Source: Rhabdophis nuchalis | Taxonomy: Eukaryota; Chordata; Lepidosauria; Squamata; Natricidae | Direction of reading: 5' to 3' | NCBI GenBank assembly: GCA_039707465.1 | Contig: CM077644.1 | Location: forward strand, 196,575,962-196,639,961 | Length of the DNA stretch: 64,000 bases | Part shown: positions 36,824 to 62,679 of the stretch, one piece after another | How positions within the stretch are numbered: position 1 is the stretch's first letter | How the letters are laid out: every line of letters begins with the position of its first letter | Made by a program: the position numbers and the translations under genes | Notes under the pieces: generated by a model | Seen by the model: the letters and a program-made list of their open reading frames with translations, nothing else | What the model was told of the DNA's origin: nothing | Databases searched by the model: none

Positions 36824-36870
36824 GGCCAACTGATGAGAGCTAATAAGCTCGAAATAGATCTATCTTGGTG
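36824..36870 (+). ncRNA. Hammerhead ribozyme, copy 1 (intact core)
   Basis: Stem I 5' strand GGCCAA is at 36824-36829 and core CUGAUGA at 36830-36836. Stem II GAGCU/AGCUC with loop AAUA is at 36837-36850 and core GAA at 36851-36853. Stem III AUAGAUCUAU (36854-36863) is a palindrome that can close only a tiny loop. H17 is C36864, and the stem I 3' strand UUGGUG follows. All invariant residues of the type I hammerhead are present. Cleavage is predicted after 36864. The short stem III suggests action as a dimer, as in Penelope-like elements. Confidence 0.88.
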
Positions 36871-37172
36871 TCTCAAATTTAAATTTATTGATCAGCTCAT
36901 AAAAAAAAACTAACACATATCTAAAAAATATTACACAACGTAACTAAAAAATGGCTCTCTGTCTAGATGGTCTCTGGTGATGAGCCGACAGGCAGAGAGG
37001 GAAACAGCATGTCTCCTCCCTTAATTGGGCCCTTACAGGAAGTTGTGGAAACAATTATCTATACTAAATACTCCTGGATTAGCTGATGAAACAGGGTAGA
37101 ACCGATTAGGCTGGAGTGCTAGGCTTCTGCCTTGGATTCATTACAGCCCCGGTTCAAATCCCAATGGGGTGT

Positions 37173-37219
37173 GGCCAACTGATGAGAGCTAATAAGCTCG
37201 AAATAGATCTATCTTGGTC
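37173..37219 (+). ncRNA. Hammerhead ribozyme, copy 2 (intact core)
   Basis: This repeats copy 1 exactly 349 bp downstream. Stem I is GGCCAA/UUGGUC, core CUGAUGA 37179-37185, stem II GAGCU-AAUA-AGCUC, GAA 37200-37202 and stem III AUAGAUCUAU. H17 is C37213. The outer stem I pair is G-C here. With copy 1 it would release a 349-nt unit from a transcript spanning both. Confidence 0.88.
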
Positions 37220-37275
37220 TCTCAAATTTAAATTTATTGATCAGCTCATAAAAAAATAAATAAAATAAAATAAAA

Positions 37276-37277
37276 AA

Positions 37278-37308
<31 letters not shown>
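37276..37308. repeat. TA microsatellite
   Basis: Run of about 15 TA units between array 1 and the following Penelope-like end segment. Confidence 0.9.
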
Positions 37309-37311
<3 letters not shown>

Positions 37312-37436
37312 GATTTTGGTTTATTCGGGTCTTTTCCCGTGTAAAATTAAAGGTGTTTTTGCAACGTTTCGATGGGATCACCCCCATCATCATCAGGCTT
37401 TGGCTTCTGCCTTTTGCAAATGATCATTTGCAAAAA
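37309..37436 (+). mobile_element. Penelope-like terminal segment with hairpin
   Basis: The segment contains TTCGGGTCTTTTCCCGTGTA, then GCAACGTTTC at 37361-37370, a 6-bp hairpin GATGGG-ATCACC-CCCATC (37371-37388) and ATCATCAGGC. The same design with a different stem sequence occurs at 62180-62216. AACGTTTCG followed by a short hairpin and TCATCAGG is, as I recall it, common at ends of Penelope-like elements. I did not verify this against a library. Confidence 0.55.
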
Positions 37437-37594
37437 TATATATATATATATTAGTAATATAGCAGTAGTATAGAAGTAATCTAATTGGTTCTCTGTCTGG
37501 ATGATCTCTAGGTTGAGTCGAAGGGCAGAGAGGGATGACGTTAAGTCTCCTCCCCTTAAAGGGACCTTGAACAGGAGCTGTGAAAATATTCTCT

Positions 37595-37597
<3 letters not shown>

Positions 37598-37644
<47 letters not shown>
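37598..37644. repeat. TG microsatellite
   Basis: Run of more than 20 TG units. Confidence 0.95.
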
Positions 37645-37659
37645 TTGGTTTTGGTTTAT

Positions 37660-39448
37660 ATATATATATGAGAAACGGAGGGAGGGAGAGAGATACAATA
37701 CAAACCTCCTTTTTTTGATACTCATGTCATATTAGAACACACAAATGCACACACACACAGAAAAGCATATATATAGGCTGTATATATGTTGCTATTATCT
37801 TCAAATATACTTGGGCAGTGATTGCTACAATAGAATTTTCTAATGATAATTTATTGAATTGGTAACACGTTATTATTTTATATGTAAGCATAAACGGAAA
37901 TCTTTGTTTACCTCTTTTTCCTTCAAAAAATTACTCACACATTGTTGTGTAATGTTTTTGGCACTTCTAATTTAAATTCTATTAAGATTTTGCCATTATG
38001 ATTCCTAGCTTGAAATACAGTGAACATGATATGTAATTGGGCCATAACTATTAATAGTTACTTCAATGACACAGTAAAAGAAAAATTATTCAATAAGCTA
38101 ACTGAACATCATTTTGTTTGTTCCATAGCATCAATTAGGATGCCTCAATTTAAATTCCAATTACTAAATGGGTACACGTAGGATAATTTTGAATGAAAGG
38201 AGAATTAAAATATTCAAGGACTCCTGCCAAGGACTCACCTCACATGAATTTTAAACAAGCAATCAAGCAGTGATCAAGCTGTACTTAACATAGACAAAGC
38301 ATTTGTGTTGCATGTATCACATGAAAAAAAAATCTAACAAAATATTTTGAAATTCCTCTTTAACTATTTGTTAAATGAATTGATTTGTCTGATTTTATGA
38401 TTTGTCTGATTTTTGAAGATTTTTAAAAGAAATCCAATTAAAATATACAAATGAATATTTCTATAGGTATGAATTATAAAAAAAAAGTATTCAGTATTCT
38501 TTAAAATAAGTCTACAGATTATATCCCAAATCAGATCTATAGTATTTTCCTACTATCATGATTAATATATGTTCACATTTTGCTTGAATAGTTCCTGCCA
38601 GTCAAAGTTCATCATTAGGGTCGTCTTTTCCTAAAAATATTTTCCCCATTTTCCTGACAATATTTACAGAAGTTTTACTTGTTTAGGAAAACAGTGATTT
38701 TTTTAAAAGGATATTTTTATGCAGAATATAATGTTTCATTCAACCAATAAATCAAAGCTTTATATTAATTCTTAGGTTAATTAATGCACTGAACATTGAA
38801 AAGAAAAACCTTCAAAAAAATAGCTGCAAATTGTAGATTTAGAAAGGTTAACTTCTCCATTACCAAGAGAGCTGTCAGGGCACTCGGTAAAACCCAAACA
38901 TTTCTTATCTAAAAGGTTTATTACAAGAATAGCATTAAAAGGTTTAAGATAAATCTGACATTATTATTACAACTATGGTAAGTTCATAGAGTATAGTTTT
39001 AGTCCATAAAGTAAATTACTACTCTCAGTGATTTTTGCCCGCCCCAAACAGCCTCTTTCATAACTTATCCCTGAAACACACAGAGACACAAACATATGCA
39101 GCATACTTCATTCAGAAAGCATTATTTCAAGTAGCTACTAGAAATCCTCACCTGCTTCACTATCACAAACCAAAGCTAAAGAAAAAAACCTCAAAATGAG
39201 GACTAATATTACAGATAGTTCTTGGTTAGCAACTTGCTACCCAGAGCCCTTCCCAAATCTTCATGCCACCAAACTGGCTTCTCATAATTAATCCCAGATG
39301 CCCACCCACTTTTTGATTATCCCAGTGTTGCACCCAATTGTCTGACCTCAATGCAGAAGAAAACATGAAGCAGTAATTTCAGCCTGGTTGACATTTTAAC
39401 TTTCTAATATGTCTGAGCTTGCCTAATTCTTTGAAAGAATAATGCTTG
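37660..39448. other. FER intron, no feature seen
   Basis: AT-rich sequence with a short ACAC run at 37750. No exon motif. Confidence 0.6.
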
Positions 39449-40685
39449 CCATATTTTTTGGAGTATAAAACGCATCTTTTTCCCTCAAAAAGAGGCTGAA
39501 AATCTGGGTGCATCTTATACAACAAACACAGCATTTGCCTCCTGAAGCCCCGCCCCTTCACCAAAATGACCATGCAGAGCCTTATGGAGGCTTTGCAGAG
39601 AGCTCCTCGGTGCTGGGGAGGGCAGAAATGAGCAAAAAATGGGCCAGTTTTGCCCCCACCCCACCCCAGCCCCCAGCAGCACTCTATAAGGCTATGCATG
39701 TAATTTTTTTTTACCCAAAAACTTTTGCTTGTCTTTGTCCCCTCCCCCCCCAGAAGCACTCTGCAAGCCCCCAAGGCTATTCATGCCTTTTTATTTGAAA
39801 AAAGGGCAATTTCTGTGAAAAACGGGCCATTTTGGGGAGGTTTGCAGAGTGCAAAAACTTTTCTTTTCTTTTTAGAAAGCCGTTTAGTTAGAGTGGTTGA
39901 TGAGAATTACATTGATCAAGTGATATATATTATATATTTATATTTATTCAATTTATACCCCGCCCTTCTCCAAACGGACCCAGGGCGGCGCACAGGAAAA
40001 TTAAAATACATACAAAACATCATATAAAATTTAAAAAACTAATTCAATAGAACCTGTGCTAAAACCAGATTAAAATCCCCAAATTTAAAAACTATCTAAA
40101 AGTCAGTATAGGGGGCTACGCTAGGCCGGCTAGATGGAACAAATGTGTCTTCTATGCAAGTAGAAACAAAGTTTTAGGTGCTACAGCAATTTCCTCCTCC
40201 AGCACATGGGTAAATACACCTGGAAACATCTACCTACCAACCTACCTACTCTCTCTCCCTCCCTCCCTATCTACTATTTCTCTATTTCTCTCTCTCTATC
40301 CCTCTACCTACCTACCTACCTACCTACCGACCGACCGACACACTTTCTCTCTCTCTTTCTACCTATCTACCAACTGTATTTCTCTCTCTCTTTCTCTCTT
40401 TCTCTCTCTATATATAACCCTTTATCTACCTACCTACCTACCTAAGTACTCTCTCTCTATCCTTAACTACGTACTGTATTTATCTCTATATATATTTCTC
40501 TCCCTATCTCTCTACCTGCCTACCTATCTACACTCTCTCCCTCCCTCCCTCCCTCCCTACTGTATTTCTCTCTCTTTATCTCCCTCTCTATCCCTCTATC
40601 TACCTATCTACTTTTTTAAAAAATGCCTCTTCAAAATCTGGGTGTGTTTTATATTCCAGTGAGTCTTATACTCTGAAAAATACGG
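39449..40685. mobile_element. Non-autonomous DNA transposon, copy 2, with nested L2 and pyrimidine tract
   Basis: The termini CCATATTTTTTGGAGTATAA and TTATACTCTGAAAAATACGG match copies 1 and 3 of the family, with body landmarks AAGAGGCTGAAAATCTGGGT and GCCTCTTCAAAATCTGGGTG. An antisense L2 3' end (ATTTATACCCCGCCCTTCTCC) occupies about 39930-40165. The right part (about 40218-40615) is a long CTACC/CTCTCT microsatellite that is absent from copy 1. Confidence 0.75.
39930..40165 (-). mobile_element. L2 3' fragment nested in DNA transposon copy 2
   Basis: Reverse complement of an L2 tail and UTR (CCCGCCCTTCTCCAAACGG, CAGGGCGGCGCACAGG) running to the start of the ORF2 C-terminus (GGCCGGCTAGATGG). 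Host transposon sequence resumes at CAAGTAGAAACAAAG. Confidence 0.75.
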
Positions 40686-40951
40686 TGTTTTTTTTACATG
40701 ATATCAGAAATAAAATATGCAAGTAAGATCAAATATTCATCAACTCCTTCCAAAGGTGGCTGTTGATTTTGCTGCCAAAGCTGATACTTTGGCAGCCCTG
40801 CTCTCTGGATTTGAATAAGAACACTTAGGAATGACCTAAAATGGTATTTGGGTTACTGTGGACGCACCCAGTGCAAGGTATCTTGAAGATTACAGTTCTT
40901 AGTGGGAGCAGTGGAAAATCTTTTTCCTTTTGCTAGACCATTCTCTTAGGC

Positions 40952-41600
40952 ATGTGTTGTGGCCCAGTCAGCTCCAGATGAGCTGCTGATGGACTCCTCT
41001 AGTAAGGAGTCCTATGAATCTGCTCTGGAGGAGGAGGGAGACCTTGAGGCAGCAGAGAGCCTGGTTGGCCACCAGGAGGTTCCTGGGTCTTGGAGTAGTG
41101 GGGAGGATCAGGGCCAGTTTGTCCCTAATGCTAGATTGAGAAGGGCTGAAAAAAGGAGGCTTCAATTGCGTCAGAAGTGAACTCAGAGGATTGGAATTAG
41201 TCTCAGCTGCCTAATGACTGGCCCCTCCCAAGAGGGTTTAAAAGGAAGTCTTTGCTGAAGAAGTTCTTGCAGAGAACAACGTTGGATTTCTAGGTTCGTG
41301 TTTAGTCGTGTATCTGGTAAGAGTCATTCAGGCAAGCAGCCAAGAAAGTTAATGACAAGCAGCCAGTATTAGTCAGAGAAAGGGGGGTCAGAACAGTCAT
41401 GTATTTGTTATGAGAAATTAAGACTCGCAGTCAAGGTGATAGTGGCAAACAGCCAAGGGAGATAGTGGCAAGCAGCCAATCTTGTATCCGTCGGTGGGGG
41501 CAGAACAGGCTTGCCTGGATGGTCAACAAGCATTTTAAAGCTTATGTTTTGCTTTGCTTCCTATCTCAAAAGTTGACCAGTCTTTTTTTGAAAACATGGC
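40952..41600 (+). other. Unassigned repeat-like segment with short acidic ORF
   Basis: A 73-codon frame (40959-41180) reads MAQSAPDELLMDSSSKESYE, is rich in Glu and Ser, and ends RLRRAEKRRLQLRQK. It is followed by a TATA-like TTTAAAAGG at about 41238 and by repeated GGCAAGCAGCCAA-type units (41335-41480). The segment begins TGTTGTGGCCC. The layout recalls a solo LTR of a Metaviridae-type retroelement, but no matching TG...CA end was found. I do not recognise the peptide. Confidence 0.3.
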
Positions 41601-41806
41601 ATGCCTTGGAGTAGTGGAGTAGTTAGATTACATGTACATCTATTTTGGACTATTACTATTACTAATAATTTTCAAAATTATTTTTTATTCTGGACTGAAA
41701 CATCTGCCTCTATTCTGATGAATATCCTCCCAGTCTCAGAGGAGGTTTACCTCTCTCCCTTGCCAAATTATACTAGAGCAACAATGTATCATGTTACAGA
41801 CAACTA

Positions 41807-42889
41807 CCGTATTTTTCAGAGTATAAGACGCACCTTTTTTCCTCTAAAAAGAGGCTGAAAATCTGGGTGCATCTTATACATCAAATACAGCATTTTTTGC
41901 CTCCTGGAACCCTACCCCCTTCACCAAACTGGTTGTGCCTAGCCCTATAGAGGCTTCCAGAGAGCTCCTGGGGCTGGGGAAGGCAGCCCCCAGCAGCACT
42001 CTATAAGACTCCATAGGGCTATGCATGTAATTTATTTGACACAAAAATGGCCCATTTTCACGATAAACGGGCCATTTTTTTTGCTCATTTTTGACCCCCC
42101 CCACCCTCCAGGAGCACTCTGCAAGCCCCCCCACAAGGCTATTCATGTTTTTTATTTGAAAAAAAATGGCCCCATTTGCGTGGAGAAATGGGCCGTTTGG
42201 GGGAAGTTTGCAGAGTGTAAAAACACTCTCTAAGCTCTTTAACTGTTTCTGTGCCAGCAGAAACAAAGTCTTAAGGTTTGTCAGCAATTTCCTTCTCCAG
42301 GACATGGATACATTTTATTTATTTATTTATTTATTATTTAAATTTCTATACCGCCCTTCTCCCTTCCGGGACTCAGGGCGGTGTACAGGCAGCAATAAAA
42401 TCAATGATAAAAAAACATGAAATATATATTTAAAAATGTATTAAATAATACGCCTGTAAACATCAATCTACCTACCTACTCTCTCTCTGTCTCTCTCTCT
42501 CCCTACTGTATTTCTCTCTCTCTCTCTATTTCTCTCTCTCTATCCTTCTACCTACCTACACACACACACTCTCCCTACCTACCTACTGTATTTCTCTCTC
42601 TCTTTCTATTTTTCTCTCTATCCTTCTACCTACCTATCTACCTACACACATTCTCTCTCTCCCCCTACCTACCTACTGTATTTCTCTATCTCTCTCTATT
42701 TCTCTATTTATTTATCTACCTACCTACCTACCTACTACTCTCTCTCTCTCCCTACCTACCTACTGTATTTCTCTTCCTTTCTCTCCCTCTCTATCTCTCT
42801 ATCTACCTACCTACCTTTTTTGTAATTTGCCTCTTCAAAACCTTGGTGCATCTTATACTTCGGTGCGTCTTATACTCCGAAAAATATGG
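41807..42889. mobile_element. Non-autonomous DNA transposon, copy 3, with nested L2 and pyrimidine tract
   Basis: The termini CCGTATTTTTCAGAGTATAAG and CTTATACTCCGAAAAATATGG are flanked by TA (41805-41806, 42890-42891). The body landmarks are as in copies 1 and 2. An antisense L2 tail sits at about 42308-42440, and a CTACC/CTCTCT microsatellite fills about 42465-42815. Confidence 0.8.
42308..42440 (-). mobile_element. L2 3' tail nested in DNA transposon copy 3
   Basis: ATTT repeats followed by TTCTATACCGCCCTTCTCCC and GGACTCAGGGCGGTGTACAGG, the reverse complement of an L2 3' end. It is at a different position from the L2 fragment in copy 2, so the insertions are independent. Confidence 0.8.
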
Positions 42890-43762
42890 TAAGTATGGCT
42901 GGTAGAAAAAAAGACCCTTTGGTAATATGCAAACTCAAGATAAGAACTTTTTTAAACAGTTTGACCAAGTAATAATGTTTGCAAAAACATCCAAATGTGA
43001 GTAATTGGAGTTAAATTAGATTCACAAAAGGAATTTCATTTGAGAATGGTAGAGAGTGATAGTGCAGGAGACTGATACAGATGTTTAAACTTAGAACTGC
43101 CTGAGGGGATTATGCATGCCTTTCCACAGTTCAAGCTTGCACTCTTTTACAACAAGAGAAAATTGAATGGACAAGTGAAGAAGTTTGGTAAATTCAATTA
43201 TTCCCAGTATTCAATAATTTCATTTGGACTTTCTGGAAAAGCTAGATTGATTCTGAAGAATGGGTCTACTATATTTAAATAGACAACAATCGATAAAATA
43301 TGGCATTAAGGTACAATCATGGATATTTGATCCAGACAAATTAGAGTTAACATCTGGGATGATGGGGGATAGAAAAGAAGCCGTGGTAAACTTCTTATGA
43401 ATTGAATATTGAGTTTGTTATCAACGGTTGTTACTTTGTTCTTGTCATTTCTGTTTTTTTGTTGTTCTGTCTGTTTGTTAATTATTTGGCCATTAGTACA
43501 GTAGATAGATGACAGGGTAATAATTTTAAACAGAATTAGATGTTTGAAAAATTTTGGGCTATGTTTATTAAGGTGTGGGAAACAAATATTATTGTAATTT
43601 ATTTATCAGTATTCAACTAGAAGGGATAATATATGTAGTGTTTGTGGGTTTCCCCCCCTAAATTCAGTTTTTCAATGTTTTGTTTCTTTTGCTTTTTGGT
43701 TTATTTATTCCTGTGAATCTTCTTCTTTTTTGCAATTTTGTATTTTAACATTTTTGAATAGC

Positions 43763-43791
43763 ATAATAATAATAATAATAATAATAAAATA

Positions 43792-43855
<64 letters not shown>

Positions 43856-43856
43856 T
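43763..43856. repeat. AAT microsatellite
   Basis: About 95 bp of ATA/AAT units with one interruption. The long poly-Tyr frame on the other strand is a product of this repeat and not a gene. Confidence 0.97.
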
Positions 43857-43975
43857 TGCCAAAAAATCAAATATTCATAAAAAGGAGAAATACAAATATC
43901 ATATAGTTTACTCTCAGCAAATAAACAAACCAAAAATAAAATTCATTTTCCACCATTGGTTTTAAATACACCTAC

Positions 43976-44098
43976 CTTAACAACAGGATTCAGAAGAATA
44001 ACGCCTGATTTCTTTGTAATCACATGTTTTGTTGTATAATGATATTCTATAAGCTGAGGAATCGTTGAAAATCCTGTTCCTTCAAATCTGTATTGATT
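43976..44098 (-). CDS. FER: FER exon: C-terminal half of SH2 domain
   Basis: This 123-nt (41-codon) exon encodes [20 protein letters not shown], then [20 protein letters not shown] and a final Lys. This is the second half of the FER SH2 domain, with the IPQLIEYHY helix that is diagnostic of the family. The acceptor is ATAG after a pyrimidine-poor tract and the donor GTAGGT starts at 43975. Both junctions are phase 0. The SH2 domain binds phosphotyrosine partners and stabilises the active kinase in the FES/FER family. Confidence 0.95.
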
Positions 44099-44841
44099 CT
44101 ATAGGATAAAATTGAGGAAGAAATACAAGAATTAAGCAATGGGAGCTCTTTCCATTAATAAAGGCATGCCTGACTTTATTGCTGTTTTATGCAATGGATT
44201 GTCTTTTAAGAGCTTCTACCAGAGAATGCTGAAAAAATTTACTAAAGTATACTTATTTGAATAACATATAATGTATGCCTTAGTTTGCTAAACCATAGTT
44301 CAGCAGCTAGAAACATTTGGAAATATAAGTTAATAATTGCTTCTTTTACTATCTTCATCCCTCTCTCCATGAAGGTTCAAATGATAGTTTATTTAACTTA
44401 TTTTGTTCATTTTTGTTATATCCAACATTGGAATTGTAGCCAATATACATATTTACTAAATAAGATTGCATACTTAATTTAAAACAAAACGTTTATTTAT
44501 AGCTTTTTCAAGCAAGATCATCAAATGAGGATATGAGGTACATAACCAAACTGAACCTCTGTGGAAATAATTAAAAGCACTGCAATGCTATAAAAATGAG
44601 CAGGAAATTTCTGCTTAATTGAACAGAACTATAGTTTTTTTCAGTAAATTGAGATAAATATTATATCTTATGGACAGAAAAACCACAAACTGTCTTCAAG
44701 TACAAGAAGCAATATTCAGTGTATGCCTTGAAATACTTCCAGATTTAACAAATAAAACATTTCACAACATTTATAACTTCTGTTCTAAGCCATGAAATAA
44801 AAATTAGAATGGAGTAGCAACTACTGTTGGACCTATTTTCT

Positions 44842-47910: not shown

Positions 47911-47911
47911 C

Positions 47912-49021: not shown

Positions 49022-49273
<252 letters not shown>

Positions 49274-49302
49274 TTAATATTATGCCACGTTTGAGAATCA
49301 AG

Positions 49303-52748: not shown

Positions 52749-54305
52749 TATAAAAATGCAAGAAGGTGGAACATTACAAATATGTTATTGGAAGTGCTAT
52801 ATATTGCTAATTTTCTAGATTCTACTCACTGTCTGTATTGAATTTTGATTAACTTCTTTCATACCTTACTTTTAGAAGTGCTTTCTTACACTTCATTATA
52901 TGAATGTTCCTGCTTAAATAGTGGCAATGGTATATCATTCACACAAAAGATTGCAAAATCAACCCAAAACAATGGAATAGATTGTTATTCTTGACACCAT
53001 CTTTTAATAATGACCTGATGGCTACATTACCTTAGGTATAGTGTCTAATTTTGCTTCTAGGTCTTCCAGGCATTGGGCTGATCAGAATATTTCATGCACC
53101 TTAGTAATGTCAAGACAAAGTGCATTTTTCCATATAAATAAATAATAGGAATAATTAGCAGCTAAATGACTCACTCTCACATAACTAAAGGGGGAAAGAT
53201 TATTTTGTCCAAACTACTTCAAATAATGCATTAGTATTGCATTCACCAAGATTCTCTTACTTAACTGCTTTCTGTAGAACAGATGACTGAAATAATATCC
53301 TTAACCCTTATATTTAGCCTGGCTTCCTTTAGTATATATATTTACTGCCTTTTAAGATATTAATATTTACCTAGTTAAGTATTTTTAAAAACTAGAAAGC
53401 AGAAATGTTGACAAGTGAGAATTTGCTAATTTTAAGATGGACAGCAAAAACAGCTGTCAAAACTACTAGCAAATGCATGAAACAGATTGCAGATTGCTTT
53501 GATGTGTGAGTAAACATATCAGTTAGAACAAGTTAGATATAGGACAATACGTCTCAATTTTCTGACCTAAAAATTGTCCAGAATTAGGGAGACTATTTAT
53601 ATTCTTATAACAATGACCATCTGCTTTTGAATATTCTCACATTAGCAATTTGATATTTGTAAATGTATACTTTATGCAATATATATTAAAACGGAGTCAT
53701 AGAAATAATTCACTTTTTTTAATGGAATAATAAAGACAAAGGTAAATACAGTAAGTAGTTGGCCTAGAATAGTAAATACAGCTTTACATAAAGCCTTATA
53801 ATAAAAGCCTTACATGCTTTAGAAAAGACAGTAAAATGTAAATCAAACAGGGCAGATAGAATCTGACATCTTTCAAAAGCACATCCTTTAGGGGTTTATA
53901 AAATTCTGCTCAAGGCATAAATGTAAGAAAATTGTCAGAGAAAAAATACAAAAACAAGTATCTTGGTAATTGCCAACAGTAATTGGTAATGGCAATTGGT
54001 AATTGCAATTATTATGATTCCTTGATTAAAAAATGGGTTGCTTTACCTTTGTAAAAATTATTTACGCCCATGTCTATAGACTCTTTTTGCAATGGGTTCT
54101 TATTAAAAGAGTCAGGAATACTTAAAACTGATTTAGACAAGCAGTATATAAAAAGAAGGAATGAAAAATATAGTGTGCTGTCCAAACCAATAAATTTATT
54201 TAGCAACCAAATGTTTAATTAAATACAAGATTGTTACTTGTAAACCAGGAATCGCAGCTTAATGAGTTTCAGAAGTGATCAGTCTAGCACACAAATTGGT
54301 AGAGG
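52749..54305. other. FER intron, no feature seen
   Basis: AT-rich sequence upstream of the SH2-linker exon. No exon motif or repeat ends seen. Confidence 0.6.
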
Positions 54306-54552
54306 AGGGTCCCCAACCCCCAGGGCGTGACCCAATATTAGGCTGCCGCATATTTGCAACCAAGTCACACAAGCAGTGGGCTGGTGCATAAGCACAGCTT
54401 GACTCACACAATAAGAGGGCTGGTGTGCATGTGTGCAACTCGATTTGTGTAAGTGGCAGGCTTGAACGCACACACATGAAATGGGCTCAGTTCAAGGGGT
54501 CCATTTCCCCTCTCCCCAGCTGGGCCACCAAGCTACAAATATTGGGGACCAC
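54306..54552. mobile_element. hAT-like miniature element (imperfect target duplication)
   Basis: AGGGTCCCCAACCCCCAGGG near one end and TATTGGGGACCACTG at the other form a degraded hAT-type inverted pair. Flanks TGGTAGAG and AGTTAGAG agree at 6 of 8 positions. Confidence 0.6.
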
Positions 54553-54846
54553 TGAGTTAGAGGGTATGCAGCTGTCCTTGAAGAAGGTATTCAGTATCTG
54601 TTAAGTAAGCCCTGAAAGGCAGGTGAAGTCAGAAAGAAATGCCAGATTAATATCTTGATTCACTTTGGTGTAAAGGTAAACCGTCTATGTCAGTCCTTCA
54701 AAATTCTGTCGATACACCCTGAAGTAATAGAATTCCAATAATCCTTGTCACATCTATTTCCTATTCTGTCTTCTTTGAAGGACTGACAAGAATTTTTATT
54801 CCAGCAGTACAGAAGTTGGGCGTGGGAAAAACAGTCAAAGGAAATA

Positions 54847-55202
54847 CAGTGGTACCTCGGTTCACGAACTTAATTGGTGAAATGACTCTGGTCGCGAACC
54901 GAATTGGTTGTGAACCGAGGCACAGTTTTCCATATGCTAAAAGCATAACAAAAATAAAATAAAAAGTCACTGAAAGTACTCACAGTGTGCCTGCTGGGGC
55001 TTTTTTCTGTATTTTCTTCTCTCTACGATCTTCCTACAGGAAGTCACAACCATGTGACAGCCAGGAATACATTAAAAATGGCCACGGTTCCTGTTCGTGA
55101 ACCGAAGCAGAGTTCGTGAACCGAAGCACATTTTGAGGAAAATTTCTGTTCATAAACCGAATTGGTCGTGAACAGAGGCGTTCGTGAACCGAGGTACCAC
55201 TG
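54847..55202. mobile_element. Mariner-like miniature element, short form
   Basis: The termini CAGTGGTACCTCGGTTCACG and CGTGAACCGAGGTACCACTG are flanked by TA (54845-54846, 55203-55204). This is the same family as 28348-28866 but without the internal duplications. Confidence 0.9.
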
Positions 55203-55838
55203 TAGTTGAATTCAATTATTCAACTATTGAATAATTCTGCTTATGTACATACTTCAATATTATGTGCTATTCCATTCTTAAATAACTTGTGAATAAAAAT
55301 TTCTAGATCACTGAAGATTTAAAATGAAGACAATTTGTATAAAGAAATCAAACTAGGTTAGCAGATATGAATCACAGCATTCTTCTTGACTTTTAACATT
55401 GCATTTGCTCATGTATAGAAGAGAGGAAGAAGTTAGGAAACATAATAATTTATTTCCTAGCACCAATTCAGCTTCCTTCTCAGATTAAATGTTGAAAGGA
55501 GAACAATTTCCAGAGAACAATTTCTGTGTGCATTGTGGGGAGGGGGAGAAAACTACTAACTGCCTGGTATAAACCAGAAATTTATTGAATAGTTCTTTGA
55601 ATATATAGGCAGTTGATTAAGTGAAGGAGGAAAACAGATTTAAAGTAGAGTTTTTATGTGCAGTAGAAGGAGTTGTTGAATTAAAGAATAAACCAAATGT
55701 TATCTAAATTAATTCTTTAATTTGGGATATTCTGCATCAACGTCAGTAGCTTATTTGGATTATGAAGTTCTCTTCTTCTTGTGAAGAGAAAAGAGGAGAC
55801 TTGTTAAAGAGATCATTGGCTGTCAATGTAAAATTGCC

Positions 55839-55913
55839 AAAAAAAAAAAAGGGACCTAAACGTCAAAGGAAGCACAAAACTTCATTTGACGTTTAGGTCC
55901 TTTTTTTTTTTTT
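55839..55913. repeat. Inverted repeat with about 28-bp arms
   Basis: An A-run followed by GGGACCTAAACGTCAAA is mirrored by TTTGACGTTTAGGTCC and a T-run. The loop is about 17 nt (GGAAGCACAAAACTTCA). The arms carry CGTCA/TGACG, which are CRE half-sites. Confidence 0.85.
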
Positions 55914-56058
55914 CCCCAAGTAAAAAAAATTAAATACTAGATATTTTTTTCTCAAGTAATCTCAGAATTCCTAAAATAGAGAGATTAATTTCCATCTCTC
56001 AAACCACTCTTGTGCCATCTCTAAAAAGTAATTGTCTTTTACTCTAAACTACCTATTT

Positions 56059-56434
56059 CAGTGATGGCTAACCTTTTTTGGCCCATGTGCCAAAAGTGGG
56101 GGGAGCGCAGGGGGGGGTCATGCGTGGGCGTGCCACACCCATAATGCTATGTGCGTGACCCCCTGCTTTTGGCACGCTTTTTTCACCCTCCCCAGGCTCC
56201 AGAGGCTTTCCAGGAGCCTGGGGAGGGTGAAAACAGCCTCCCCTCCCCACCTCCAGAGGCTTCAGGAGCTTCCCTGAAGCCTCAAGAGGGTGAAAAACGG
56301 CCTCAAAAGAAGGCCTAAATCAGCTGGCCAGTGCACACATGCGCGCTAGTGCTGACAGGGCAACGTCTTGCGTGCCCTAAGAAATGGTTCCGCGTGCCAC
56401 CTCTGGCACCCGTGCCATAGGTTCGCCATCACTG
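56059..56434. mobile_element. hAT-like miniature element with 8-bp target duplication
   Basis: The termini CAGTGATGGCTAACC and GGTTCGCCATCACTG form an inverted repeat flanked by a perfect ACCTATTT duplication (56051-56058, 56435-56442). The body is GC-rich (CAGGCTCCAGAGGCTTTCC), internally palindromic and non-coding. Confidence 0.92.
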
Positions 56435-56442
56435 ACCTATTT

Positions 56443-58970
56443 CATATCAATAGTATGAGAAAGCAGAATAGTTTTTCAGGAACTTTCCAGATGGCACTCA
56501 TTCTTAGACTCAATTGAGTCACGAAAAATATTCAGAATGCTGAGAAGATAATGTTCCTAAAGCCAACTGTTAGCTATTAAAAACAGCAGCTTTGAAAGAA
56601 TATGTTTGCCAAATATGCAAAAATTCTAATACCCCAAAATTCTAATACCCAAAAGGCCTTGATATTGATTTAAAATAATGCAGCATAATGCAAGAAAAAG
56701 TTTTCAGCTTACAATGTAAAATTGGACAATCAAATAGCTGTATTTGTGGACAGAGAAAATAGTAAATAAGTTGTTCAAATTGATAGTTGAACTTGGCATG
56801 TTCAACCCTAACACTCCAAGTTCAACCCAAACAAAATACTATTAACTAAAGGAAATCAATTCATTTCATGTAAACATCCTGCCTGCCTTTAAGGTTTTTT
56901 TTTTTCTTTTTCAACACAGATACTTTTGTGAACTTATTGTTTTGCAGTCTTATTTTTTTTTAAATGTTTAAAACTTGGTCAAAGAACAGATCAAATAAAA
57001 ATTAAGTATATGATTATTATATTACAAATTAACTTTAAATTTTGATAAAATGCTGCACAAAATCTAGCATTTTGTTTAATGTGTTTTAAAATATTTTTTC
57101 CCTGGGTAAAATTAGATAGTTAATAAGTTACAGAACACTTAGACATTTTGAAGTACTGCTACACAGCATAAATCCTATTCATATAAAATAATTAAACTAT
57201 TCTAAGATAAGCAAAACAAAAGTATATAAAATGAAATTATGATAAAGCCTAAAAGGATTCAAATTTAGGCAATTCCTTTTTCATAAATGTGCATGTATCA
57301 GAAGCTGAATTTAATCCACCACTTTATTTTACAGTCTTTATCTTCTTACTGTAAAATATATTTAAATCATAGATTTTACCAATATTTTCCCAGAAATCAA
57401 AATGACTATGCAGAGCAAATGGGGAGCCAGTTTATTTACTGAAGGAAATTGAGTCCTTCTTTCCAGTATCACCTTTGCACAGACATTATGGAAGAAACTG
57501 ATAGCTTAATCTCAAAAAACTGTATCTCTACAAAGGCAGTAACTCATTACAATTCTGGACATGCCACATAAACTGCATCATTTAAGTTTAAATTGAGTAG
57601 TAGAGCTTTTGAACTAGAGGTACTTTTGAAATGTTGTATATTGTCAGTGCTCTAACAAAATAGCTCCATGAAATACCTGTACACTCACAAAATGACTCCT
57701 ATAGAGGCACAAAACCTCAATCTGGAATAAAATGGATAAGATTGCACAATATCACCTCTTCTACAATTTTAGCTAATCTTTGGCTCCCACTCTCTCCCTG
57801 ACTGGGCTGATCTGATCTTATTTTCTAAGAATGTCCAAGGATTGTATGAGATCCAGACAATCTTGTAAATATCAATCCACACTTTTCTTTGACAAGTGTT
57901 ATATCATTATTTATCAACAAAAGTTGAGAAAGAGAAGGGAGGAATACAATATAAAATAACTCGGACTATCTGTGGCCCAATAAAATTTGCAGCCCTTTTA
58001 ATAATTTTTGCAGACAATTACTTCAATGCCAAAAAATAGATTAGAAATATAAATAAAAAAATAGCATTAATCATGATGCAAATTAAAAGACACAATTTGT
58101 TTGATCTAACAAAGTTTTAAGACTACAATTTAAGGACAATGGGAAAAGATACATGGAACTATTATTATAGCACACTGAAATCTTTGGCTCACAAAGCTAA
58201 AAAAAAATCTACATAAGGCTCCTAAAAACTGCTAGTTATTTATTGCAAACTAGCTCACTTAACATGATAGCATGGAATTTAACATTGTTGCCTTCCCTGT
58301 TTGTAAACCCAATTAACTTAATAGTTCAATCTTGATAAATTGTAAAAACAAGGATTTATAGTTAATTAGTTTACATTTCTATTTAAATGGCACTGCCTAT
58401 TTGCCAAAGCATTTCCCAGTTCAGTTTTTCAGTTTAATCTGATATATGACAGAGCACAAATAAGCTTTAAACTGAAATTGATTGAATGTATCATATATGC
58501 AAAGATACCATACTCATTTCTTCACTAGGTTTAGAAAGAAGATAAGTGCAAAGAGAATTTTAACCCACACAGTTTTGTTGTGCCCTGTGTTACCTGAAGA
58601 ACCAATAAAACAATTATATGATGTTACATAATATACCCCTGGTATAATGCAGTCATATATTGTCCAAACTGGCCAGGTACATTTGGAGAATACCAACAGT
58701 GTAAACATACTGTACGTTTTCACATGACCAACCTTATTTAGATTGCCTTTTAATCATGAATACAATGAGTTCTACAGCATAAATGTTTTTTGCCTTACTG
58801 TATTTATCTTTACAGAACAGATGTACAGTTATCCCCCTAGTTTTCTTTCAATATAATAGCCATGCAACAGAATTTTTCCTTTATTTCCCAAATAATTCTT
58901 TCAGAATATTTCCCTGAAAAGTCTTTGGAACAGATATGGGGGAAGTTCTAAGGGCTCCAATTTGGCCAGG
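56443..58970. other. FER intron, no feature seen
   Basis: AT-rich sequence between the putative FerT-like first exon and the shared exons. No additional exon was recognised. Confidence 0.6.
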
Positions 58971-59044
58971 AATATTTATTTGACCAGTGGATACCATTAC
59001 TAGATATGTATTTATTTGACCAGTGGATACCATTACTAGATACA
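58971..59044. repeat. Tandem duplication, about 36-bp unit
   Basis: TATTTATTTGACCAGTGGAT followed by ACCATTACTAGATA occurs twice in a row. A diverged relative of this segment with its flanks (GACCAGTGAATACACCACTA, AAGTATCACTATAAACAAGC) lies at 60160-60250. Confidence 0.85.
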
Positions 59045-59812
59045 TTACAAGTATCACTATAAACAAGGAAAACCTGTCATTTTTACCTATTTATTTACAC
59101 ACACATTTACACACAGCATGCATAAGAATGGCATGTTCAGGCTGCTTTTATACTAACTGTAATTTATTATATAGAGATAATACTTTAAAAATTAAATATA
59201 AATGCTACAAAATCTATTAAATTTTAAAAAGAAAAACCATATAGAGACTTCTACTTCTGATTTACCTTGCATTATATCCTCTACTGAAAAATTAATAAAA
59301 GATTCAAAAATATCTTACCTCAATAAAAAAAAGTGCCGGCTGAATTTACCCTGTTCAGCTTTTAGTACAATAGAGGAGAAAATGCATTTTTAAGCAATTA
59401 AACTGTGTTAAATACTAAATCTTATCCTTTCATAAATTGAAACAGAAAGAAATAGGCAACGTTTAAAAGATTAAAACAAAACAGATATTTTTGGTAGGTA
59501 GGCAACAGAATTTATGATGCATACTTAATCAGCATGTATATGACAAATATTTTTAAAGTTTTATATGCAATGTTTTGCCGTAATTGCTGAGATTTCAGAG
59601 TACTCAGTATAGAATCTTAGCTGCAGGCCATGTTGAATGATAAATGTAAGAATGCAAGCTAATAATGCTTGTGATATTATATCAGTAGATATTTTATGAA
59701 ATATTTAAACATTGGGTATTATATATTTTAATCTATAAATTATAATTCATTTCAGTCCATGAATCATACATTTTCTAATCAACCAGAGTTTTCTAAATAA
59801 CAATATTTTTAA

Positions 59813-60052
59813 GAGCCATTGTGGCACAGTGGTCAGAATGCAGTACTGCAGGATACTTCTGCAAACTGCCAGCTGCCAGCAATTTAGCAGTTTGATTCTC
59901 ACCAGCTCAAGGTTGACTCAACCTTTCATTCTTCCAAGGTCGGTAAAATGAGGATCCAGACTGTTAGGGCTGATATATTGACTCTGTAAACTGCTTAGAG
60001 AGGGCTTAAAGCACTGTTGAAGCAGTATATAAGTCTAAGTGCTATTGCTATT
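59813..60052 (+). mobile_element. tRNA-derived SINE (squamate type)
   Basis: It starts GAGCCATTGTGGCACAGTGG and contains GCAGTACTGCAGGATACTTC, GTTTGATTCTCACC (B-box-like), GGTAAAATGAGGATCC and CTGTAAACTGCTTAGAGAGG. It ends AAGTGCTATTGCTATT. It is the best-preserved SINE in the window. Confidence 0.85.
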
Positions 60053-60855
60053 TCAGCTTCAGCTGTTAGTCCATAAAATGGAATGGTGAATTTTTTCCTA
60101 TGTCTATTATTAGTCTGTTTTCATTCATCTGAAAATTAGTCTTAAAAATCTATTCTTCGGAGGGTTCCAATTTTGCCAGCGTGACCAGTGAATACACCAC
60201 TAGATTTAACACAAGTATCACTATAAACAAGCAAAAAATGTCATTTTTAACTTATTTATGTATATGTACACATTAGTGGCCATATCTACTACTCATGTTC
60301 ACATTAGAATTATGTGCATTACCTGAATCTTATGTAATTATTTCTGACATCCTAATTTCCTTATAGCAGACACCCTCAGAACTAGTGCTGACTCTTAAAA
60401 GTTTATGAATTTAATCAGTATAAATGAAAACTAAATGTTATGATTGAATGTCTTGTGTGGATCTAGCTTTTTGGCTTATTTAACTAACAATGAATATTCA
60501 CTGCTTTCACTGGCCTTTATTCTCTCCCTGAAAGGGAGAAAAATATCAGAACATACTTAACAAAAATATTCTGAAATTATTTTATGCCAATTTGTTAGAG
60601 TAACAATAGCAAATGAACTATGCAAATCATAAAAATAACCATAAGAATCCAAAAAACAGTTTATAAATCAATGGAAAAATTTCTTTTTACCACTCCATGT
60701 TATTGTGAAATATATTGGACAAGGTCATAAACAATGGATGGAAAGCAAACTGCTTTGCCTGTTAAAGTAACAATATCACACCTCAGCCTCTTACACACAC
60801 ACCAAAAAAAGAGGGGGGGATTAAAAGAAGTATTGTCTTCTAAAGAATATATTAC

Positions 60856-60993
60856 CTTAACTTTTGTGGATGTTGTATGTGAGGAAAGTGGCAGAGATTT
60901 AGTAGTAACCGAAGAAACCATAGGTTCGTTTTCACAAGTAGTACAGAGTCCAGGATCTGGTTTATCATGTAATGCTGAGCATTTGTGAGCCAT
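60856..60993 (-). CDS. FER: Candidate alternative first coding exon of FER (FerT-like short isoform)
   Basis: This is a 138-nt open frame of exactly 46 codons, starting MAHKCSALHDKPDPG and ending SSHTTSTKVK, followed by a donor GTAATA starting at 60855. The ATG has A at -3 and G at +4. The phase-0 donor joins directly to the phase-0 exon at 50557-50649. The peptide is Cys-, Ser- and Thr-rich and does not align with the F-BAR/coiled-coil part of full-length FER that should precede DKKDKVSR. In mammals a testis-specific FER product (FerT) starts from an intronic promoter with a unique N-terminus of about 43 residues fused at this position, so size, place and phase all agree. Homology of the peptide to mammalian FerT was not tested. 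A cryptic acceptor (GGCTCAG) just upstream means use as an internal cassette exon cannot be excluded. Confidence 0.72.
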
Positions 60994-61639
60994 AATGAAT
61001 AGCAGTACTGAGCCAAAAATATATGACTTGTCAGTATGCTAAACAGATTGGTCCCAAAATGAACAATATCTAGTTGCAGGATAACAATCTAATGTACCCA
61101 AAAAATATTGTTCAGTTTTTGAATAAGCTGGCATACTATCTTTAACCCAGAATGTCTTTGATCTCATAGGAAGGCAAACTGGATTACTCTATGCTACATA
61201 ACAAAAAGTTGCAAAGTGTCACATTTATTTCTTCTACTTATAAGCTGTTAGGAGGCCTCTTACTATAAAAGTTATCAACTATTTACTTCCATTCTTATTC
61301 ATAAGTACACTCTTTGACAGTACTCAAGGTACCACTGAAATGATTCCATTTTGTTAAGCAAGCAACTATTAGGCAGCTGTTTCAGCCTCCACTCTTTAGC
61401 TCCAATTGTTGAACTGACAGAACACCCCAAGCTGACAGTTTCCCTGTGTCACTTTGAATATAAGAATTCTGCAGGTGAGAATGCTTAGAACACTTGCATG
61501 CATTCTGCTGTGATGAATAATGCTGCAGTGCCACAGTATATCCTGAAGAAACTAATGGAGAAACTTTAACAGAGATATGCAGGATTATTTGCCTAGGCAA
61601 AAGGACTGAAGCACATAGCTTTGGCAGATGCTTCCCTAA

Positions 61640-61715
61640 GTCCCTGGAGTATAAAAACGAAGAGGTTGCAAGATTTTGTTACTATAACAAATCTCAATAA
61701 AAGTTGATTTCCTGG
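61640..61715 (+). promoter_or_regulatory. Possible LTR-type promoter and poly(A) pair
   Basis: GAGTATAAAAACGAAGAGG (TATA box at 61650) is followed 46 nt later by CAATAAAAGTTGATTTCCTGG (AATAAA at 61696). This spacing and wording resemble the core of a retroviral or Gypsy LTR. No flanking TG...CA ends or protein genes were found. Confidence 0.3.
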
Positions 61716-61800
61716 TCTGGTCTACCTAGCAGGGCTGAAAGTGTTCTAGATCGATCGATTGATCGATAGATAGATAGATTTTGAGCTGATAAACAAGGGA

Positions 61801-61847
61801 GACTAGGATAGATCTATTTTGAACTATTTAGCTCTCATCAGCTAGCC
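61801..61847 (-). ncRNA. Hammerhead ribozyme, inverted copy, core mutated
   Basis: On the minus strand it reads GGCUAG, CUGAUGA, stem II GAGCU/AGUUC with a G-U wobble, then AAAA where GAAA is required, AUAGAUCUAU, C and CUAGUC. Replacement of G12, the general base, should abolish cleavage. It faces the intact copy at 61859-61905. Confidence 0.8.
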
Positions 61848-61858
61848 ATACCCTTACT

Positions 61859-61905
61859 GGCTAGCTGATGAGAGCTAAATAGCTCGAAATAGATCTATCC
61901 TAGTC
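61859..61905 (+). ncRNA. Hammerhead ribozyme, copy 3 (intact core)
   Basis: Stem I GGCUAG (61859-61864) pairs with CUAGUC (61900-61905). Core CUGAUGA is 61865-61871, stem II GAGCU-AAAU-AGCUC is 61872-61885, GAA is 61886-61888 and stem III AUAGAUCUAU is 61889-61898. H17 is C61899. Stem I has CUAG/CUAG where array 1 has CCAA/UUGG, so pairing is kept by double changes. Confidence 0.88.
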
Positions 61906-62127
61906 CCCCTTGTTTATTTATTTATCAGCTCAAAAACCTAACACACATGAAAACAAAAGACAACGAAAAAATAGCTTTCTGTCTGCATGGTCTCTGGTGA
62001 TGAGCCAAAGGACAGAAAAAGAAAGCAGTATGCTTCCTCCCTTAATTGGGGCTTACCAGGGTGTTGTAACACAAGCATATATATGATCAGCTCAAAAAAC
62101 CTAGCATATATACATATACATATATAC

Positions 62128-62258
62128 GGCATTGCTGGCTTCGGGGATTTTCCCGTGTATATAGCATGGAGATGTTATTGCAACGTTTCGACAAGATCTC
62201 ACTTGTCATCATCAGGCAGGCTTATATACACGGGAAAATCCCCGAAGCCAGCAATGCC
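62128..62258. repeat. Perfect 36-bp inverted repeat enclosing a hairpin motif
   Basis: The arms at 62128-62163 and 62223-62258 (GGCATTGCTGGCTTCGGGGA...) are perfectly complementary. The loop has CAACGTTTCG, a 6-bp stem GACAAG/CTTGTC with a 6-nt loop (62190-62207), and ATCATCAGGC. The segment at 37361-37398 has the same context with stem GATGGG/CCCATC. Confidence 0.9.
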
Positions 62259-62561
62259 AGCATACCTACACCCGTGAAAATCTACGAAAACAAATACATA
62301 TATACATATATACATATATACATATACATATATTGATCAGCTCATATATATATATATTGATCAGCTCAAAAACATAACACACATATAAAAAAAAATTACA
62401 CAACAGAATTCATGGCTTTCTGTCTAGATGGTCTCTGGTGATGAGCCGAAAGGCAGAAAAGGAAAAGCAGTGTGCTTCCTCCCTTAATTGGGGTCCTAAC
62501 ACGGTGTTGTGGAAACAATTATATATAACTATCCTCCTGTCTCAGCTGACAAGAACAGAAC

Positions 62562-62638
62562 CTAGCTGGCTTAATGGCAAGGCTCTCGCCTGGCATGTAA
62601 TACAGCCCCAGTTCGAATCCCAGTAAGGGTATGGCTAG
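62562..62638 (+). other. tRNA-Gly-like sequence upstream of hammerhead copy 4
   Basis: CTAGCTGGCTTAATGGCAAG has an A-box (TGGCTTAATGG). CTCTCGCCTGGCATG resembles the anticodon arm of tRNA-Gly(GCC), and GTTCGAATCC (62611-62620) is a B-box. Ends CTAGCT and GGCTAG can pair as an acceptor stem. The anticodon stem is poor, so it is a derived head and not a tRNA gene. Confidence 0.65.
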
Positions 62639-62679
62639 CTGATGAGAGCTAAAAAGCTCGAAATAGATCTATCCTAGTC
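62633..62679 (+). ncRNA. Hammerhead ribozyme, copy 4 (intact core)
   Basis: Stem I GGCUAG/CUAGUC, core CUGAUGA 62639-62645, stem II GAGCU-AAAA-AGCUC 62646-62659, GAA 62660-62662, stem III AUAGAUCUAU 62663-62672 and H17 C62673. The stem I 5' strand is also the 3' end of the tRNA-like sequence just upstream. Confidence 0.88.

What the first reader, a model, noticed from the sequence alone, without database searches (positions are those of the whole stretch)
36824..62679. Four intact hammerhead ribozymes with covarying stem I inside FER introns
At 36824, 37173, 61859 and 62633 the + strand carries CUGAUGA, a perfect 5-bp stem II (GAGCU/AGCUC), GAAA, a palindromic mini stem III (AUAGAUCUAU) and C17. 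Stem I pairs in every copy but with different bases: CCAA/UUGG in the first array and CUAG/CUAG in the second. Loop II varies (AAUA, AAAU, AAAA) while paired and core positions do not. Such conservation points to selection for ribozyme function. Hammerheads with tiny stem III are known from Penelope-like elements and retrozymes. They lie antisense to FER, so FER pre-mRNA does not contain them in active sense.
Basis: partly seen in the sequence, partly recalled or inferred. Interest (0 to 1): 0.9.

Follow-up and report, generated by a model that had tools for sequence, protein, structure and literature searches.

The report
Reptile retrozymes copied by Penelope elements
A likely lizard or snake genome carries a young family of small repeats, each with a hammerhead motif predicted to cut its own RNA, whose sampled copies mostly end at two fixed internal points, much as the genome's Penelope-type retrotransposon does, which therefore likely copies them.

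Summary
The four hammerheads are real, at the stated coordinates, and not chance (0 in 200 shuffles). They belong to an interspersed family with many near-identical copies in this 1.9-Gb, apparently squamate, genome: 349-bp units (A type), 41% GC, no ORF, one type I hammerhead each. Stem I covaries among copies (CCAA/UUGG, CCAG/CUGG, CUAG/CUAG). Core plus stems II and III differ at 1 of 35 sites between the two window subfamilies, against 55 of 268 outside stem I. Stem III is a 10-nt palindrome, predicted unstable alone but strong in a double-hammerhead dimer.
New result: in 39 loci, 51 of 68 young chains end 3' at one of two internal sites (5.5 expected), usually followed by simple repeats. 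Thirteen loci hold head-to-head pairs, one tail-to-tail. The genome's abundant Penelope-like element (RT and GIY-YIG motifs, own hammerhead) shows a similar two-site, simple-tail, head-to-head pattern, as in-vitro work on an Anolis Penelope-like enzyme would predict. Likely mechanism: a retrozyme-like element, dimer-cleaved, mobilised in trans by that element. Cleavage, circles and mobilisation are untested. Against it: the monomer is not unusually self-paired, only 4 of 13 inverted pairs have both outer ends at the sites, and the tRNA-like promoter is incomplete in the young type.

The parts
36818..36874 (+). hammerhead A1 with outer stem I; predicted cleavage after C36864
   Evidence: Rfam HH9 25.9 bits, below cut-off
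37167..37223 (+). hammerhead A2; predicted cleavage after C37213
   Evidence: Rfam HH9 26.4 bits, below cut-off
61853..61909 (+). hammerhead B1 (outer stem I cut off by the inversion junction); predicted cleavage after C61899
   Evidence: Rfam Hammerhead_1 33.4 bits against cut-off 34
62627..62683 (+). hammerhead B2; predicted cleavage after C62673
   Evidence: Rfam HH9 31.9 bits, below cut-off
61797..61853 (-). fifth, inverted, broken hammerhead (core GAAA changed), in FER sense: arm of a head-to-head insertion
36667..36864 (+). 5'-truncated unit of array A
36865..37213 (+). complete 349-bp unit, cleavage site to cleavage site
37214..37277 (+). terminal partial unit ending near 3' site 1, with A-rich tail
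36607..36652 (-). inverted arm at the 5' side of array A
61900..62083 (+). partial unit of array B, ending near 3' site 2
62351..62673 (+). nearly full unit of array B
62674..62816 (+). terminal partial unit of array B
62567..62577 (+). box A-like TGGCTTAATGG (tRNA-like head, array B)
62610..62620 (+). box B-like AGTTCGAATCC, 32 nt after box A
36802..36812 (+). box B-like GGTTTGAATCC (CpG-decayed form of GGTTCGAATCC)
37151..37161 (+). box B-like GGTTCAAATCC (the other CpG-decayed form)
62128..62288 (.). Penelope-like fragment inserted in array B: head-to-head, 36-nt perfect inverted arms round a decayed hammerhead, two different 3' ends with simple tails
37311..37440 (-). second, diverged Penelope-like fragment with decayed hammerhead, next to array A's 3' end

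Best explanation
These hammerheads belong to a young family of retrozyme-like repeats in a likely squamate genome, units of about 340-350 bp with one type I hammerhead each, predicted to cut their multimeric RNA as paired (dimeric) ribozymes, and likely reverse-transcribed in trans by the genome's Penelope-like element. Shown from sequence: the motif, stem I covariation, the 349-bp unit, many near-identical copies, the two discrete 3' ends with simple-repeat tails, and the head-to-head insertions. Inferred: an array is transcribed, perhaps by RNA polymerase III from the tRNA-like head; hammerheads pair through the palindromic stem III and cut; monomers are probably circularised by a host ligase. 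The Penelope-like RT would then start at either of two internal sites (after ...AAACTAACA, unit about 51, or after ...AATTATCTAT, unit 198), stutter there to make the simple tail, and run through the joined cleavage junction to a random stop. Because that kind of enzyme cuts and extends both target strands, two cDNAs can meet 5' to 5', giving inverted pairs.
For: Motif: 4 in the window, 0 in 200 shuffles. Covariation in 79 hammerheads (window plus 38 loci; stems I and II free in the search): stem I pair 1 A-U 58, G-C 19, unpaired 2; pair 3 C-G 65, U-A 13, unpaired 1; each stem II pair kept in 76-79 of 79. Constraint: 1 of 35 substitutions in core plus stems II and III, against 55 of 268 in the other regions outside stem I and loop 1, Fisher p = 0.009. 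Dimer: stem III as a lone hairpin +3.2 kcal/mol, as a 10-bp duplex -9.8; the double hammerhead -34.2 (A2) and -39.6 (B2) against -25.2 and -31.0 for two monomers, within 0.1 of the cofold minimum. Family: 40 of 40 scored matches at 99% or more. 3' ends: 33 at site 1, 18 at site 2, 17 elsewhere, of 68 (expected 4.5 and 1.0; the end windows were set). In chains not selected by the query, 17 of 30. Tails. Head-to-head 13 pairs, tail-to-tail 1; every one of the 13 has at least one outer end at a site, 4 have both (about 1 expected if the second were random, p = 0.016). 5' flanks are AT-rich: 0.73 over 16 nt in 42 ends, against 0.61 for the window. Penelope-like element: of 11 end sequences, 6 at or near its first site, 4 at its second, 1 elsewhere, and 9 of the 10 run into simple repeats (my reading); neighbouring pairs 5'-5' 7, 3'-3' 1, same strand 3. 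Its GIY-YIG region: 150 of 3,045 candidates scored, all 92-100% identical to the 38-aa query. RT and GIY-YIG motifs in one open frame in L054. In L058, 1 of 12 such loci, GIY-YIG, hammerhead and end site follow on one strand. By my count its first site lies 47 nt after the assumed cleavage, against about 48-51 nt in the retrozyme. Literature: an Anolis Penelope-like enzyme starts RT at two internal sites, cuts and extends both strands and prefers AT-rich targets (PMC11167929); Penelope-like elements were named as a strong candidate to mobilise metazoan retrozymes (PMC7229834).
Against: No RNA, cleavage or circle data. The single-hammerhead fold is not the minimum-energy fold of a lone copy (A1 -7.5 against -11.1, A2 -9.0 against -12.6, B2 -11.7 against -15.5), nor of longer stretches. 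The monomer circle is not unusually self-paired: 56% paired against 57% in shuffles, z -1.5, whereas published metazoan retrozyme RNAs are said to exceed 70% (PMC4918200). Only 4 of 13 head-to-head pairs have both outer ends at the sites, so twin priming is not excluded for the other 9. 5' ends do not cluster at the cleavage site (1 of 68 within unit 1-5), and 15 of 30 non-query chains cross it, so those templates were circles or uncut RNA; the lap-against-lap test could not tell which. Site 2 of the retrozyme (unit 198) has no counterpart at the same distance in the Penelope-like element. Sequence shared by the two beyond the hammerhead core was not looked for systematically. No target-site duplication was recognised by eye. 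No intact full-length Penelope-like ORF was shown (longest open frame 552 aa), and GIY-YIG scores are below the Pfam cut-off. Canonical box A: 0 of 58 CCAA-type, 0 of 7 CCAG-type, 4 of 10 CTAG-type copies. All 39 loci come from one A-type query, so age and end statistics are for that selection; 0 units and 0 Penelope-like pieces in 10 sampled 4-kb stretches.
Confidence: 0.67

Rival explanations
1. An ordinary tRNA-derived SINE moved by a LINE, with a hammerhead as passenger; the inversions are twin priming.
For: GTTCGANTCC box B in 43 of 58 CCAA-type and 2 of 10 CTAG-type copies (relaxed form 49 of 58 and 8 of 10), and box A TGGCTTAATGG 33-34 nt before its GTT in 4 of 10 CTAG-type copies; simple-repeat 3' tails; scattered 5' ends; only 4 of 13 inverted pairs have both outer ends at the sites; an open LINE frame of 960 aa in the window.
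Against: Two discrete internal 3' ends instead of one. Four pairs with both outer ends at sites, where about one is expected from an arbitrary second priming point (p = 0.016). The Penelope-like element of the same genome shows the same kind of ends. No LINE 3' end in the window matches the unit: BLAST of the unit found only the two arrays and their neighbourhood.
Confidence: 0.2
2. A satellite formed by DNA-level tandem duplication, such as the SINE-derived satellites of squamates.
For: Head-to-tail units; SINE-derived satellites are known in squamates (PMC10702118, outline, Background and passages).
Against: The longest unbroken young run in the 39 loci is 662 nt, under two units; copies are interspersed on many contigs with RT-like ends and tails.
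Confidence: 0.04
3. The hammerheads were kept in FER introns to regulate FER, like the conserved HH9 and HH10 intronic ribozymes of amniotes.
For: Best sub-threshold Rfam match of three of the four is HH9; intronic position.
Against: Intact copies are antisense to FER; the family is found on many contigs with near-identical copies; scores are far below the HH9 cut-off of 52 bits.
Confidence: 0.03
4. The motif is a dead relic with no ribozyme activity in vivo; the pattern of copies reflects a few source loci only.
For: Weak stem III and non-hammerhead minimum-energy folds of lone copies; no cleavage-site cluster of 5' ends in inserted copies; the Anolis Penelope-like enzyme does not need hammerhead cleavage in vitro (PMC11167929).
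Against: Compensatory stem I changes and a near-invariant core across subfamilies; the dimer fold is favoured.
Confidence: 0.12

Closest known systems
Metazoan non-LTR retrozymes (newt satellite 2 / axolotl retrozymes; Cervera and de la Pena 2020, PMC7229834, parts 1-3 of 6 and passages read)
   Same: Type I hammerhead with very short palindromic helix III, expected to work as a dimer; tandem units of about 330-350 bp; low GC; no ORF; coexist with Penelope-like elements carrying minimal hammerheads.
   Different: Host is apparently an amniote (vertebrate cases named in what I read: amphibians, coelacanth); RNA not unusually self-paired; tRNA-like head, whereas a review says retrozymes seem to lack promoters (PMC7761336, passages); insertion ends and head-to-head structure not described in what I read.
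Sm-alpha repeats of Schistosoma mansoni (tRNA plus hammerhead; PMC4918200 and PMC6155905, passages)
   Same: Short non-autonomous retroelement with a tRNA sequence and a type I hammerhead.
   Different: The schistosome repeat is said to hold a full tRNA; here the tRNA-like head is degenerate in the young type. No sequence comparison was made.
Penelope-like elements, Penelope/Poseidon clade, such as PAc of Anolis carolinensis (PMC11167929, parts 1-2 of 4 and passages)
   Same: Hammerhead near the RT start region, two internal RT start sites, both-strand cutting and extension, AT-rich target, partial tandem structure.
   Different: The element here has no RT or endonuclease ORF and a fuller hammerhead (stem III pairs and an extended stem I), and its second end site lies further downstream.
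HH9 / HH10 intronic hammerheads of amniotes (Rfam RF02275; PMC6155905, PMC3088659, passages)
   Same: Best sub-threshold Rfam match of three of the four; loop II AAAAA and similar stem I in array B.
   Different: Single conserved intronic copies, not a mobile family; scores 25.9-31.9 against a cut-off of 52.

Membership tests
Type I hammerhead ribozyme | Conserved core CUGANGA...GAAA...UH with three helices, open at helix I | tested here: met
Type I hammerhead ribozyme | Rfam gathering score | tested here: not met
   none at gathering; Hammerhead_1 33.4 of 34 for the best
Type I hammerhead ribozyme | Self-cleavage | not testable with these tools
   needs bench work
Metazoan non-LTR retrozyme | Short tandem units (about 150-450 bp), each with a type I hammerhead | tested here: met
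   349-bp unit, up to about two units in a row
Metazoan non-LTR retrozyme | Low GC (<45-50%) and no ORF | tested here: met
   41.5% GC; longest open stretch 50 codons on the doubled consensus; no frame of 110 aa or more in the arrays
Metazoan non-LTR retrozyme | Highly self-paired monomer RNA (a described property, >70% paired) | tested here: not met
   56% paired, null 57%, z -1.5; 53%, null 57%, z -1.0 for the window unit
Metazoan non-LTR retrozyme | Expression as linear and circular RNA | not testable with these tools
   no RNA data
Metazoan non-LTR retrozyme | Loop 1-loop 2 tertiary contact | not testable with these tools
   a bulge in stem I and loop II are present, contact unknown
Penelope-like element | RT plus GIY-YIG ORF | tested here: not met
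   no ORF in the unit; such frames exist elsewhere in the genome
Penelope-like element | Insertion ends at two internal RT start sites, insertions on both strands | tested here: inconclusive
   two end sites clear (51 of 68); both outer ends of inverted pairs at sites in 4 of 13; anatomy only, no enzyme test
tRNA-derived SINE | Box A and box B at tRNA spacing | tested here: inconclusive
   both boxes in 4 of 10 CTAG-type copies; box B only in the CCAA type; ARAGORN finds no tRNA
tRNA-derived SINE | LINE-derived 3' region | not tested
   no LINE 3' end was compared outside the window

The most novel reading that the evidence does not exclude
Living amniotes carry active retrozymes: tRNA-headed, dimer-cleaving hammerhead RNAs that hijack Penelope-like reverse transcriptase, which copies them, probably as circles, from two internal start points on both target strands at once, leaving head-to-head inserts. 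Such elements could be the living kin of the mobile source of the ultraconserved HH9/HH10 intronic ribozymes.
Probability: 0.33. Interest if true: 0.8.

Novelty: new variant of a known kind. Interest (0 to 1): 0.62.

Why it matters
What moves animal retrozymes is an open question; Penelope-like elements were proposed as a strong candidate on coexistence and shared hammerheads (PMC7229834). Here the insertion scars themselves carry a Penelope-like signature, and the predicted RT start points are exact enough to test with the existing Anolis enzyme assay. It would also put a young retrozyme-like family in an apparent amniote, where the passages I read name Penelope-like hammerheads (Anolis) and single conserved intronic hammerheads. 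The listings shown by my paper searches (at most 20 titles each) held no report of squamate retrozymes, in an open-access library that lacks most subscription journals. A tRNA-like head on such an element would bear on the statement that retrozymes seem to lack promoters.

Tried and rejected
Circle versus linear multimer template: lap-to-lap identity inside dimeric inserts is usually within the range seen between loci, with one shared rare variant in one locus; no decision. Highly paired monomer RNA: not found. A specific parent tRNA: several recalled tRNAs score alike for array B (best Thr 36, Gln 32, Gly 31; shuffle 95% 25, maximum 32), so none is named. Lack of sense TTTT in the window units (0 in 1,333 nt; shuffles expect about 4.6) fits pol III read-through but is weak, and one TTTT stands in the upstream part of the CTAG-type consensus, which reaches past some inversion junctions. 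Loose chaining of units (24 of 40 stretches with head-to-head and 14 with tail-to-tail pairs) mixed old and nested copies; the strict version is the one used. Retrozyme-Penelope chimeric junctions: 14 neighbour pairs, 7 of them 3'-3'; nested insertion into each other's tails explains these, and one apparent 1-nt junction was an artefact of my own query cut, so no chimera is claimed. Pfam GIY-YIG search of the genome scored 150 of 1,267 candidates and gave one match, which looks like host SLX1 (recalled). Viral-contig scan: 0. The 40-aa Penelope N-terminus found no protein homologue. PDB search of a Penelope-like frame: no informative match. Rfam miRNA-like and mraW hits in the window are inverted repeats below cut-off.


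Full report
OBSERVATION. A descriptor of core, stem II of at least 4 bp, GAAA, stem III and a 4-bp stem I finds these four on both strands of the window and none in 200 first-order Markov shuffles. Rfam gives nothing at gathering thresholds but names all four below threshold: Hammerhead_1 for 61859 (33.4 bits, cut-off 34), HH9 for the others (31.9, 26.4 and 25.9 bits, cut-off 52). A fifth, broken copy is inverted at 61853-61797, and two decayed Penelope-type motifs lie on the minus strand.

WHAT IT SITS IN. Cleavage site to cleavage site, array A contains one full 349-bp unit plus partial units on each side; array B contains a nearly full unit, partial units and an inserted Penelope-like fragment. 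The A consensus is 41.5% GC with no open stretch above 50 codons. FER segments (recalled human FER, residues 413-683) run on the minus strand, so array A is in a FER intron and array B most likely in another. Nothing ties the element to FER.

HOST. A LINE ORF from the window has its best named hits in Varanus, Podarcis, Anolis and Crotalus. I infer a squamate; the organism itself is not named to me.

FAMILY. The window's genome was searchable at intervals (G000, 1.918 Gb). An 82-nt query over the A-type hammerhead gave 232 first-look candidates; the 40 scored are all at 99% or more. Two of these are the window's own array A (held as L001); I fetched the other 38 with 1.5 kb each side, which makes 39 loci. 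Among the 85 unit segments at 93% identity or more to the window unit, median non-CpG divergence from their consensus is 1.3%; this is a selected set, but it shows many young copies. Ten evenly chosen 4-kb stretches held neither unit nor Penelope-like piece. Copy number is unknown, because the pattern search did not complete.

RIBOZYME. In 79 hammerheads (window and 38 further loci; core and stem III letters were part of the search pattern, stems I and II were free) stem II pairs in 76-79 of 79 at each position, and stem I comes mainly in three paired forms: CCAA/UUGG, CCAG/CUGG, CUAG/CUAG. Copies are related, so these are counts of copies, not of independent events. Between the A consensus and the window's B unit, core plus stems II and III differ at 1 of 35 positions (in loop II), and the remaining regions, apart from stem I and loop 1, at 55 of 268, gaps not counted (Fisher p = 0.009). 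The stem III hairpin alone is unfavourable (+3.2 kcal/mol), while the 10-nt palindrome pairs with itself at -9.8; a lone copy has a lower-energy fold that is not the hammerhead. The double hammerhead is 8.6-9.0 kcal/mol below two monomers in the two copies tested, A2 and B2. This is the design reported for newt and axolotl hammerheads, which act better as dimers (PMC7229834).

INSERTION ANATOMY. The 3' ends of young copies are not scattered. Of 68 chains (88% identity or more), 33 end at unit 38-60 and 18 at 196-200, against 4.5 and 1.0 expected; 17 end elsewhere (windows set). The first site reads ...CATAAAAAACTAACA and usually runs into (CA)n, (TA)n or (TG)n; the second reads ...ACAATTATCTAT and often runs into (CTAT)n. 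Chains not used to find the loci show the same: 17 of 30. Thirteen loci hold two chains joined 5' to 5', one holds two joined 3' to 3'. All 13 pairs have at least one outer end at a site; 4 have both, against about 1 expected if the second were random (p = 0.016). That is modest support for priming on both strands and leaves twin priming open for the other nine. 5' ends are spread over the unit, with no cluster at the cleavage site (1 of 68 within unit 1-5), and 15 of 30 non-query chains cross the cleavage junction. So those templates were joined at that junction, as circles or as uncut multimers; I could not decide which. 5' flanks are AT-rich (0.73 in 42 ends, window 0.61).

PARTNER. Penelope-like fragments occur in 20 of 40 stretches (39 loci and array B) at 80% identity or more (one search lists 21 of 39 loci, two of which, L014 and L015, match only over 19-20 nt of simple repeat). 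Of 11 end sequences, 6 lie at or near ...CCAGCA and 4 about 30 nt further at ...GAAAACA; 9 of these 10 run into simple repeats (my reading). Neighbouring Penelope-like pieces are 5'-5' in 7 cases, 3'-3' in 1 and on the same strand in 3. The hammerhead is followed by an open frame that starts in stem II, as in the Anolis element PAc. The genome holds many close copies of its GIY-YIG region (3,045 candidates; 150 scored, all 92-100% identical to the 38-aa query; frames up to 552 aa). RT (Pfam RVT_1, 40.8 bits) and GIY-YIG motifs share one frame in L054 (GIY-YIG 15.3 bits, below the cut-off of 22.6). Of the 12 loci held, L058 shows the order GIY-YIG, hammerhead, end site, (TA)n on one strand, and L059 the end site with (CA)n. 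Frangieh et al. 2024 (PMC11167929, parts 1-2 of 4 read) report that PAc starts RT at two internal sites, cuts and extends both strands, prefers AT-rich DNA, and that genomic ends fall on those start sites. By my count the first site here is 47 nt after the assumed cleavage in the Penelope-like element and about 48-51 nt in the retrozyme; the second sites do not correspond.

PROMOTER. Upstream of the hammerhead is a tRNA-like head. Array B has TGGCTTAATGG and AGTTCGAATCC 32 nt apart. The A consensus has a perfect box B (GGTTCGAATCC), but its box A is degenerate. A pol III origin is plausible for the older type and unproven for the young one.

VERDICT. It works like a metazoan retrozyme and most likely moves by Penelope-like machinery. 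I do not file it as a proven retrozyme: circles are untested and the described high self-pairing was not found. Cervera and de la Pena named Penelope-like elements as a strong candidate mobiliser; the insertion structure here is evidence of that kind and can be tested with an existing enzyme assay. The listings of searches in an open-access library showed no report of squamate retrozymes; that library lacks most subscription papers, including four I asked for.

Noticed in passing
window 3395-5800 (+) and 11379-14261 (-): Long open LINE reverse-transcriptase frames (801 and 960 aa); the 960-aa one has RVT_1 and an endonuclease domain, best named hits in squamates.
   Followed up: partly
window 55834-55919, 56171-56242, 41928-42029, 25271-25351: Strong inverted repeats that score below cut-off for microRNA or mraW families; probably foldback elements rather than those RNAs.
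   Followed up: no
window 61789-61917: 60-nt arms, 95% complementary: the head-to-head junction of array B makes a long hairpin carrying two hammerheads on opposite strands.
   Followed up: partly
window 37483-37586: An older, diverged piece of the same unit (about 75%) ending in a long (TG)n.
   Followed up: no
L058: A Penelope-like frame is preceded, in the same reading frame, by what by eye looks like a retrozyme fragment; nested or adjacent insertion likely.
   Followed up: no
L001, L029, L032, L036 and others: Retrozyme and Penelope-like 3' ends often face each other across one simple-repeat tract (7 of 14 neighbouring pairs), as if each uses the other's tail as target.
   Followed up: partly
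window 36607-36652: By eye, the inverted arm of array A starts about 3 nt from the predicted cleavage position, which might mark a cleaved RNA 5' end; a single case, with no such cluster in the other loci.
   Followed up: partly
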